Of a DNA stretch of 64,000 bases, positions 27,661 through 31,973 are shown piece by piece. The notes beneath the pieces were generated by a model. That model was given only the letters and a program-made list of their open reading frames with translations. It ran no database searches and had not been told where the DNA came from. The number at the start of each line of letters is the position of its first letter. Position 1 is the stretch's first letter. The translations under genes and the position numbers were made by a program. Location of the stretch: assembly GCA_004369045.1 (NCBI GenBank), contig ML213508.1, positions 587,748 to 651,747 on the forward strand, in the 5' to 3' direction. Source of the DNA: Heliocybe sulcata (taxonomy: Eukaryota > Basidiomycota > Agaricomycetes > Gloeophyllales > Gloeophyllaceae).

Positions 27661-28813
27661 TCAAGAAGGAGGGCAGAACGTAAGAGTGTAGTCAGCAGCC
27701 AACCCGGAATTGCAGGTCCAGAGAGCGGTGCCGCTGCTCTCGTCGTAAGCATAGACGTAGGAGTCCGGGCAATTGTTCTCTGCGAGAAATAATCAGCCAA
27801 AATGAGCAGGCATAATGAAGGCAGAGAAACGTACTGAAGTAGGAATAGTAGGCAACACCCGACGGGGGGCAGGTCGCCGCGGTGTCATATTGACCGGAGC
27901 AGCAATTGGGCGAGTTGGCCTGGTTGCCGTCGAGGTTGGCATCGCACGCACTCTTGCACCCGACAGGAAAACCAGTGGAGTCGTAAGGTCCTTGAAGAGG
28001 ACTAGGGCCTGAGACAAACGTTAGATAAATCGGAGTATATACTAAGACAAGGCATACAGTTGGGACCCAAGTCAACTGGGCACGATGGTATGCCGCAGCC
28101 AACATTGTTATCAATCCGAGCTGGGAGGTTATAGCCGTCGACGAGAGAGACTAAGTTAACATCGTGGATTCAGTGCCCTGAGCGTCGGAAAGCCATGAAA
28201 GAAGCGTACTATCGTAGTAATCTAGGCCTCCGCTGGCTGAGAGAGTCCACTCAGCTACGGTAGCAGGCGGAACACCCTACAGAGTTTCATCAAAGTAAGC
28301 CAACTATAACATGATTATACTTCACGGAACGTACGGTGCCAGTATGAGGATCGCACTCCAGGCCGCCGTTACAACCACCGTCGAGACACGAGTTAGGACC
28401 GGGGTTCGTGCTGAAGTCGCAATCGCGCCGAGCCTGCGTGGCATGAACGGTCAGATGCTTGGACTAGTAGCCACGTTGATACCTACCCAAATACGACCCG
28501 CCTGCCAGTTATCAGGCACGTAGAACGAAACCGAAGTGTATGCAGCTGCCTCCCATCTAGAGTGAAATCAGCTAGTGACTTCGGTCGTCTACAGAGAATG
28601 CACCCACCCAGTGGCATAATCTGGCACAGCACTTCCTACGTTCAAGTCCGTGAACATAGCGGGCCTGTGGATAGAATACTTAGACCTGTCCCGAACAAAA
28701 GTCAGGTGGCATACTGACCAGATCGTAAAGGGACAGGCGTTGTAGACGGTGAATGTCCTCGCCGAAGCGAGCGACACTGCAGACAGAGCCACAGATGCAA
28801 GGAAAGCCTTCAT
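27661..28813 (-). CDS. Thaumatin-like protein 2 (secreted)
   Basis: Paralogue of gene 1. The signal peptide is MKAFLASVALSAVSLASA, then RTFTVYNACPFTIW. A 54-nt intron (28718-28665) interrupts here, phase 2, before PAMFTDLNVGSAVPDYATG; gene 1 has no intron at this site. The remaining segments follow the family: DNWQAGRIW, CDFSTNPGPNSCLDGGCNGG, GVPPATVAEWTLSASGG, SLVDGYNLPARIDNNVGCG, GPYDSTGFPVGCKSACDAN, NCCSGQYDTAATCPPSGVAY, YVYAYDESSGTALWTC, YTLTFCPPS. About 255 residues. The intron is stop-free and divisible by three, so an unspliced read gives an 18-residue insertion. It probably has the same wall-related or antifungal role as gene 1. Confidence 0.92.
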
Positions 28814-30433: not shown

Positions 30434-31973
30434 TCATGTGATGTGGTGCAGGAGCTCTCGCCGCGGAGGTGCGAGAATGCAAATGGCAGCGAAGGTGCCG
30501 AAGAGGAAACCCGTAAGTGCCGACGAAGCAGTCACGACCAGGGAGCCGTGGCTCTCCGTAGAATCTTCCCTGCTCAACGCAGACGCCACGGGTTTCGCAG
30601 GTTCAGTCGTACTTGAACTGCCCGCTTGATCGTGCACATGCGTCGACGACGGTTCCGCGTTCTGCGGATGCGAGATCAGCACGGGAGCCTGCGCAGACTG
30701 CTCTAGCATCGACTCTGTTCCCATCGTCAACAGCTCGACCTCCTGCTCCGGATTCTTGATCTGGACCACCTCAGGCTTTGACGAGGGAAGCTCCGCTTCC
30801 GTCCCGTCCTCAGAACCCACCTGCGTCGACGCACAGTCATGGTCTTTCGCCAGCCACTCCAGATCGTCGACAATGCTCTGCAACCTCGCCACCTCCGCAA
30901 CAACCTTTGCCCTCCTCGCCTCCCGGATCTCCTCGCCGACAATATCAACGCACGAGCGTATCAGGTCCGGGATCTCGGGGTGCTCCCGCACCCACCACTG
31001 CCCCGGCCAAGCAGCGATGGCTAGCGCAAGCTGGTACACCATTACACAGCTCGCGTCCAAGTCGTCCAGGACCCGCTCGTGGAACCGCGCACGCAGGAAG
31101 CGAAGGGCGAGGCGGATCGACCCGGTCGTCGTGTCTCGCAGTCGGTGTCTGTCTTCCATCCGGAGGAAATGCTCAGACATCTCCTTGCAGAACTGGCGGT
31201 ACGTCGATTTCTTGGGAACATACTCCCACGTCAGCCGCGACATAACACTCGTATCTTTCTGGTGAAAGTCTAGCGAAGGCCGAAGGAAGTACGAGGGAAG
31301 TGCTTCCAGCACGGATAGGAGCGGTGTTGAAGACAGTACTGCTGTGCCCGGTATAGATCCGTACACGAGGACGTTCTGAGATTCTTGAGCAAAGCGGTGG
31401 AACTTCCAGTGATCTCTGTGACGCCTGAAGAATAATCAGGTTAGACTCAAAAGCACGTGTCGATGAGTGGTGTGCTTACTCTTTCTGGGAGCTCTCATTG
31501 AGAAGCTCGACCGCTGTAACGGCTCGGTCGACCAGTACTTTGGCATCTATGACAGCGATATGCACATCGTGCTTGACACCAAGTTTGTACCGCCTGCACG
31601 CGTCCCATACCGCCCACGCAAAGCTGAAAGACGTCGAAACAAACGGCGAAGAAGATTTCGTAGTCCAATCCAGGTGCCTCACCACGTCGGCATACGAAGT
31701 GGGTAACGTGTCCCCCTTCAAGGATTGCGCACGCGGGCGCATGTTGGCATCCGGGATGGAATCATCCGCCTCCTCAGTGAACGACCCCCCAAGGAAGTAC
31801 GGCTCGCTCTCATCGAAGAACGGCCCCAGAGGTCGGGGAGTATACACTCGGAAGAGGAAGGGGTTCTGCTCTACAAGTTTCTTGAAGGAGAGCTCTGGCC
31901 CGAAGCCGTACTGCGGCAGCAGATCGAGTTGGCAGCGCTGCTCAGCCGGTGAGCTCGTTGCGTCGAGTGACAT
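30434..31973 (-). CDS. DUF7587 domain protein with C-terminal membrane segment
   Basis: Two exons joined by a phase-2 intron at about 31474-31430; about 494 residues. The N-terminal half is the conserved domain: PFLFRVYTPRP (Arg42), WTTKSSSPFVSTSFSFAWAV (STS at ~113-115), VHIAVIDAKVLVDRAVTAVE, then after the intron HWKFHRFAQESQNVLVYGSI with PGTAVL (Gln178-Glu179). I know this pattern as DUF7587 in basidiomycetes, with no assigned activity. The ordered Arg, Ser-Thr-Ser and Gln-Glu elements resemble the R-S-E signature of ADP-ribosyltransferases; that is inference. The middle is helical (RSCVDIVGEEIREARRAKVV), then an acidic Ser/Glu linker. The protein ends in a hydrophobic segment (TGFLFGTFAAICILAPP) typical of a tail anchor. 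No signal peptide is seen, so the domain should face the cytosol. Confidence 0.82.

What the first reader, a model, noticed from the sequence alone, without database searches (positions are those of the whole stretch)
30434..31973. DUF7587 protein carries an R - STS - QE pattern like an ADP-ribosyltransferase, on a tail-anchored scaffold
Seen: LFRVYTP (Arg42), then SPFVSTSFSF (STS ~113-115), then VHIAVID, then FAQESQNVLVYGSIPGTAVL (Gln178-Glu179). Established: R-S-E class ADP-ribosyltransferases have an Arg on strand 1, an STS on strand 2, and a catalytic Glu shortly before a '..V..GGIP...I' strand. The order and spacing match, including the final strand and 'GSIP' turn. Inferred: DUF7587 may be an ART-fold domain, cytosol-facing and held to a membrane by the C-terminal helix. 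It may already be placed in that clan in current databases; I cannot check.
Basis: partly seen in the sequence, partly recalled or inferred. Interest (0 to 1): 0.78.

Follow-up and report, generated by a model that had tools for sequence, protein, structure and literature searches.

The report
Fungal toxin-like ART domain lacking glutamate
A fungal protein carries a domain of unknown function that turns out to be related to the ADP-ribosylating tips of bacterial toxins, but its key catalytic glutamate is replaced by asparagine, so it has probably been repurposed or switched off.

Summary
The gene is real: minus strand, two exons, a 55-nt GT-AG intron, 494 aa, one Pfam domain, DUF7587 (37-200, E=5e-18). 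In-silico removals show the model favouring Arg, Ser and Glu by 4-5 bits each. The catalytic Glu column is Asn182, not Glu179 (RhsF FATKDQEVLI against FAQESQNVLV); the model is indifferent to Glu179 (+0.3 bit when removed) and prefers Glu over Asn by 3.8 bits. So the protein keeps Arg42 and Ser113 and lacks the Glu: most likely a membrane-tethered pseudo-ART, possibly a non-canonical enzyme. Against: RhsF itself is not matched by the DUF7587 model, direct scores are modest, and exon-wise structure models were uninformative (pLDDT 40, 46). No held paper mentions DUF7587 or PF24494.

The parts
31480..31973 (-). Exon 1 of the DUF7587 gene, residues 1-164 and two bases of codon 165
   Evidence: ATG at 31973; translation of the spliced CDS checked
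31425..31479 (-). Intron, 55 nt, GT-AG
   Evidence: it joins the two frames and restores the DUF7587 domain
30434..31424 (-). Exon 2 with stop codon, residues 165-494
31319..31865 (-). DUF7587 / ART-like domain, residues 37-200 (interrupted by the intron)
   Evidence: Pfam PF24494, E=5.3e-18
31848..31850 (-). Arg42, counterpart of Arg1403 of RhsF
   Evidence: alignments A1-A3; removal costs 4.9 bits and shortens the match
31629..31637 (-). Ser113-Thr114-Ser115, counterpart of the STT of RhsF (Ser1445)
   Evidence: removal costs 4.6, 2.1 and 1.9 bits
31382..31384 (-).
   Evidence: removal gains 0.3 bit; ungapped alignment of the strand
31373..31375 (-). Asn182 (AAC), in the column of the catalytic Glu (RhsF Glu1497)
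   Evidence: hhalign register; Asn-Ala difference 0.4 bit in both proteins, Glu-Asn difference 3.8 bits
31349..31360 (-). G187-S188-I189-P190 turn, counterpart of (G)(E)IP of the relatives
   Evidence: Ile and Pro invariant in A2
30470..30541 (-). C-terminal hydrophobic stretch, residues 460-483, possible tail anchor
   Evidence: Kyte-Doolittle mean up to 1.83 over 19 residues; no dedicated predictor available

Best explanation
DUF7587 is an ADP-ribosyltransferase-type domain of the Arg-Ser-Glu class, homologous to the C-terminal toxin tips of bacterial RHS proteins such as RhsF (shown by sequence profiles). The window's fungal copy keeps Arg42 and Ser113 of the NAD pocket but has Asn182 where the family has its catalytic Glu (shown by alignment register and by profile scoring). 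The likeliest working is that the domain still forms the ART fold and may bind NAD(H) or a former substrate, transfers ADP-ribose poorly or not at all, and serves as a pseudo-ART (sensor, decoy or scaffold) held to an intracellular membrane by its C-terminal helix (fold by homology; the rest inferred).
For: DUF7587 in the window protein at 5e-18; the same model scores RHS tips above cut-off: L131 45 bits, L142 29.4, Rhizobium L148 29.2. L131 alone matches PDB 9ZDM at 3.8e-8; window domain plus these three tips at 4.2e-15. 9ZDM is RhsF-CT, an ART by crystal structure and RNA assay needing Arg1403, Tyr1456 and Glu1497. Below cut-off the model also finds known ART families: a Scabin-like protein (19.7 bits) and a Pertussis_S1-family protein (21.1 bits). 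Asn in the Glu column. Hydrophobic C-terminus.
Against: No ART family or ART structure matches the window protein directly at E up to 10. The RhsF stretch itself is not matched by the DUF7587 model at E up to 10. hhalign probability for the direct comparison is only 18.6-19.8% and covers 21-23 columns. No confident model of the fold. No fungal relatives could be fetched, so it is unknown whether Asn182 is general or private to this gene. NAD binding and loss of activity are inferred.
Confidence: 0.6

Rival explanations
1. Active but non-canonical: the domain hydrolyses NAD or transfers ADP-ribose with Arg42 and Ser113, using Asn182 or the substrate itself in place of the usual Glu, at a membrane.
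For: Arg and STS are kept. In Tne5, an ART-fold RHS toxin, the acidic pocket residue is dispensable and the enzyme degrades NAD(P) (PMC13285283, passages). Some PARPs work without the Glu (recalled).
Against: In RhsF, the closest relative of known structure, replacing the Glu abolishes toxicity (PMC13324451 section 8); the DUF7587 model prefers Glu over Asn by 3.8 bits.
Confidence: 0.25
2. One reading: a canonical R-S-E ART in which Glu179 is the catalytic Glu.
For: Order of motifs; Glu179 is only three residues from the Glu column and could in principle move in.
Against: Ungapped register with QEVL puts Asn182 in the Glu column; the model is indifferent to Glu179.
Confidence: 0.1
3. Not an ART: the shared short motifs reflect convergent strand-turn patterns, and DUF7587 in the fungus has another fold.
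For: No direct match to ART families or structures; no confident model.
Against: Matches over some 90-135 model positions above a curated cut-off in RHS tips from three sources; 0 of 2000 and 0 of 200 shuffles reach the direct scores.
Confidence: 0.05

Closest known systems
RhsF-CT of Chromobacterium violaceum (PDB 9ZDM; PMC13324451, passages and sections 7 and 8 seen), an RNA ADP-ribosyltransferase tip of an RHS toxin
   Same: Same domain by profile through DUF7587 tips; Arg, S-T, Q before the Glu column and IP in register
   Different: RhsF has the catalytic Glu and Tyr1456 and sits on an RHS shell; the window protein has Asn182 and Asp124 there, no RHS part, and a helical region with a hydrophobic C-terminus
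RHS tips above the DUF7587 cut-off (L131 in G914, L142 in G1488, Rhizobium L148)
   Same: Members of DUF7587 by Pfam's own cut-off
   Different: Bacterial, C-terminal to RHS sequence, Glu present in all three
Tox-ART-RSE of Zhang et al. 2012 (PMC3482391, passages seen)
   Same: R-S-E ART toxin domains, listed there also from ascomycetes and basidiomycetes
   Different: DUF7587 is not named in the passages seen; whether its members were included could not be checked
LRRC9 ART-like family (PMC7955679, abstract and outline seen)
   Same: A eukaryotic ART-like domain with a divergent active site, proposed to be a pseudoenzyme
   Different: Different architecture (flanking leucine-rich repeats); no sequence link tested
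Tne5 (PMC13285283, passages seen)
   Same: ART fold on an RHS toxin in which the usual acidic residue is not needed
   Different: NAD(P) glycohydrolase; its pocket Lys and Glu differ; no sequence link tested

Membership tests
Pfam DUF7587 (PF24494) | Score above the curated cut-off (27 bits) over most of the model | tested here: met
   66 bits, model positions 3-143 of 146
R-S-E class ADP-ribosyltransferases | Arg on the first strand | tested here: met
   Arg42, conserved column
R-S-E class ADP-ribosyltransferases | S-T-S/T motif on the second core strand | tested here: met
   Ser113-Thr114-Ser115, conserved columns
R-S-E class ADP-ribosyltransferases | Catalytic Glu on the late strand (Q/E-x-E or Q-E) | tested here: not met
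   Asn182 in the Glu column; Glu179 not in it
R-S-E class ADP-ribosyltransferases | ART fold (split beta sheet with NAD cleft) | tested here: inconclusive
   Fold by homology to 9ZDM; models of separate exons at pLDDT 40 and 46 are uninformative; the spliced protein may not be submitted to the tool
R-S-E class ADP-ribosyltransferases | NAD binding and transfer of ADP-ribose | not testable with these tools
   needs protein
RHS polymorphic toxin tips | Domain C-terminal to RHS/YD repeats, with an immunity gene downstream | tested here: not met
   No RHS match in the protein (Pfam at E up to 10); downstream neighbourhood has no recognised immunity family in the ORFs scanned
Tail-anchored membrane proteins | One hydrophobic helix close to the C-terminus and none elsewhere | tested here: inconclusive
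   460-483, best mean 1.83; highest elsewhere in the listed windows 287-305 at 1.37; no dedicated predictor

The most novel reading that the evidence does not exclude
A domain of the bacterial RHS-toxin ART type has been turned, in a fungus, into a membrane-tethered protein that works without the catalytic Glu, with Asn in its place: either an NAD sensor or an ART-fold enzyme with a new active-site arrangement, showing what becomes of a toxin domain once a eukaryote keeps it.
Probability: 0.25. Interest if true: 0.72.

Novelty: new variant of a known kind. Interest (0 to 1): 0.5.

Why it matters
It gives a named domain of unknown function a fold, a likely active site and kinship with RHS toxin tips, each testable at once, and shows that at least one fungal member lacks the residue that canonical ARTs use for catalysis. 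If Asn at this position is common in fungi, DUF7587 would hold a eukaryotic pseudo-ART group; if rare, this gene is a natural experiment beside active relatives.

Tried and rejected
Single-sequence AlphaFold of the two exons apart (collected in 83, 84): mean pLDDT 40.3 and 45.9, taken as uninformative; no fold search was run on them.

Direct searches with the window protein or its domain found no credible relative: viral contigs, plasmids at E up to 1, phages at E up to 10, genome contigs, PDB with the whole protein and with the domain at E up to 10. tblastn found no second copy in the window. A degenerate DNA pattern for a DUF7587 motif that I recalled found nothing in viral contigs. Bacterial tips against viral contigs and phages: nothing.

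Matches of the DUF7587 model at E up to 0.01 per genome: 20 distinct places. Eight look ART-like (L128, L130, L131 and its identical copy L138, L133, L141, L142, L144); six were read and do not (L125, L129, L132, L134, L140, L143); six were not read (L126, L127, L135, L136, L137, L139; the search tables show stops inside each of these six). E-values are per genome and 1538 genome searches were made, so the weak matches alone prove nothing; the argument rests on those above cut-off. The four matches at E up to 1 (L121-L124) were not read. L146, found with A2 (2 of 369 genomes matched), scores 17.2 bits with DUF7587, below cut-off.

Tyr1456 of RhsF, also needed for its toxicity, is missing here (Asp124, counting 11 from the Ser). 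The DUF7587 model hardly minds that column (Tyr to Ala -0.2 bit, to Asp -1.0), so I do not count it as a family residue that was lost.

[quoted passage not shown] NCBIfam gave nothing meaningful for the window domain, two tips and the RhsF stretch. PMC4245714 was seen in a listing only.

Full report
What is there. The minus strand at 31973-30434 encodes a 494-residue protein in two exons joined by a 55-nt GT-AG intron. Gene style and neighbours suggest a fungus: of 20 ORFs of the window scanned against Pfam at E up to 0.01, seven matched a family: BRO1/ALIX, SPIN90/Ldb17 (two pieces), aldo/keto reductase, VIT, DUF4743 and a thaumatin-like fragment. That DUF7587 is mainly a fungal family, and that this may be a basidiomycete, is recalled or guessed, not tested. 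The protein has one Pfam domain above cut-off, DUF7587, at residues 37-200.

Is the domain an ART? The window protein itself matches no ART family or ART structure by sequence at E up to 10. The link was made by searching bacterial genomes with the DUF7587 model. In 1538 genome searches, overlaps counted, three genomes had matches above the curated cut-off. G914 has an RHS protein with such a tip and a second, identical tip nearby (45 bits each). G1488 has a 169-codon frame with such a tip, preceded by RHS core sequence with an in-frame stop (29.4 bits). G1393 has an RHS-like tip with an internal stop (L141, 34.1 bits), which was set aside. A Rhizobium plasmid RHS protein, found with the G914 tip (3e-6), also scores above cut-off (29.2 bits). 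These tips lie C-terminal to RHS sequence, where polymorphic toxins carry their toxin. The three that were aligned carry R, S-T-[TS] and Q-E-V. Matches below cut-off include two more RHS tips (L128, L130), a Scabin-like ART (L133) and a Pertussis_S1-family ART (L144). In all, 8 of 20 matches at E up to 0.01 look ART-like; the other 12 are told under Tried and rejected.

The fold is anchored by experiment on a relative. The G914 tip alone matches PDB 9ZDM chain B by phmmer at 3.8e-8, the only PDB match at E up to 1. A profile of the window domain with the three tips above cut-off matches it at 4.2e-15 (the only other match is 2KXI at 0.028, which I recall as the ART NarE). The wider profile A1, which also holds L128, L130 and L133, matches it at 1e-17, then pertussis toxin S1 chains weakly (0.002-0.007). 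9ZDM is the RhsF-CT/RhsFi complex (data statement). [quoted passage not shown] Counting in the printed chain, the R of VYR, the S of ISTT, the Y of DFY and the E of QEV are 0, 42, 53 and 94 apart from the Arg, as in the published numbers.

Does the window protein itself belong there, beyond its Pfam label? A profile of six bacterial tips including RhsF scores the domain at 15.8 bits; among 2000 shuffles, 1254 were reported and the best has 6.7. hhalign of the single domain sequence against four tips gives E 0.0012-0.0013, score 25.6-25.8 and a probability of only 18.6-19.8%, over the last strand; 0 of 200 shuffles reach the score (best 19.5) and the reversed sequence scores 11.4. These direct scores are modest; the strong statement comes through DUF7587. 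Against it: the RhsF stretch itself is not matched by the DUF7587 model at E up to 10.

Which residues? The last strand aligns without a gap: RhsF F-A-T-K-D-Q-E-V-L-I-R-N-G-I-P, window F-A-Q-E-S-Q-N-V-L-V-Y-G-S-I-P. Glu1497 therefore corresponds to Asn182, and Glu179 to a Lys. I tested this by removing residues in silico and rescoring with the Pfam model. Window domain, 69.4 bits: Arg42 -4.9 (the match also shrinks), Ser113 -4.6, Thr114 -2.1, Ser115 -1.9, Gln178 -0.6, Glu179 +0.3, Gln181 -1.1, Asn182 -0.4; Trp123 -1.3, Asp124 +0.1. G1488 tip, 29.4 bits: Arg -1.5 (match truncated, so a lower bound), Ser -4.7, Thr -2.2, Thr -2.3, Gln125 -1.2, Glu126 to Ala -4.2, Glu126 to Asn -3.8, Trp123 -0.2, Pro134 -3.7; Tyr82 to Ala -0.2, to Asp -1.0. 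The Asn-Ala difference (0.4 in both) and the cost of the preceding Gln (1.1 and 1.2) agree between the two proteins, as expected if Asn182 sits in the Glu column. So the family profile is R-S-E, and this member is R-S-N. The codon AAC is two changes from a Glu codon, so a single base error does not explain it.

How it may work. Shown: kinship with ART toxin tips, Arg and Ser kept, Asn at the Glu column. Inferred: an ART-like fold able to hold NAD or a former ligand, weak or no transfer, and tethering by the hydrophobic stretch 460-483. Structure models of the separate exons were too poor to help. A membrane-tethered pseudo-ART is my first choice (0.6), a non-canonical active enzyme second (0.25). 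The latter is not idle: in Tne5, an ART-fold RHS toxin, the acidic pocket residue is dispensable and the enzyme degrades NAD(P) (PMC13285283, passages).

What is known. No paper in the held library contains DUF7587 or PF24494; the library is open-licence PMC only, and Pfam's clan assignment could not be read. Zhang et al. [quoted passage not shown] New here, as far as these searches go, are the placement of DUF7587 in that class, its tie to RhsF-type tips, and a fungal member without the Glu. The direction of transfer was not tested.

Noticed in passing
L131 and L138 (G914:C2:2544871-2545158 and 2548786-2549073): The same DUF7587 tip occurs twice about 3.9 kb apart: once at the end of a 1446-codon RHS frame and once in a separate 167-codon frame that starts in RHS core sequence, as in displaced RHS tips.
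   Followed up: partly
L142:1-3387 (G1488): A DUF7587 tip in its own 169-codon frame below RHS core sequence that has an in-frame stop; a 112-aa ORF follows at once and could be an immunity gene.
   Followed up: no
L148 (Rhizobium sp. TAL182 plasmid pRetTAL182b, record 92603-98073): An RHS protein whose tip is a DUF7587 member, followed with a 4-base overlap by a hypothetical protein that may be its immunity protein.
   Followed up: no
L144:1285-2031 (G1488): A separate ORF with Pertussis_S1, Scabin-like and Enterotoxin_a matches above cut-off, also reached by the DUF7587 model below cut-off.
   Followed up: no
window 27692-28150, minus strand: Exon-like ORF with a thaumatin-family match (E=6e-7) some 2 kb from the DUF7587 gene.
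   Followed up: no
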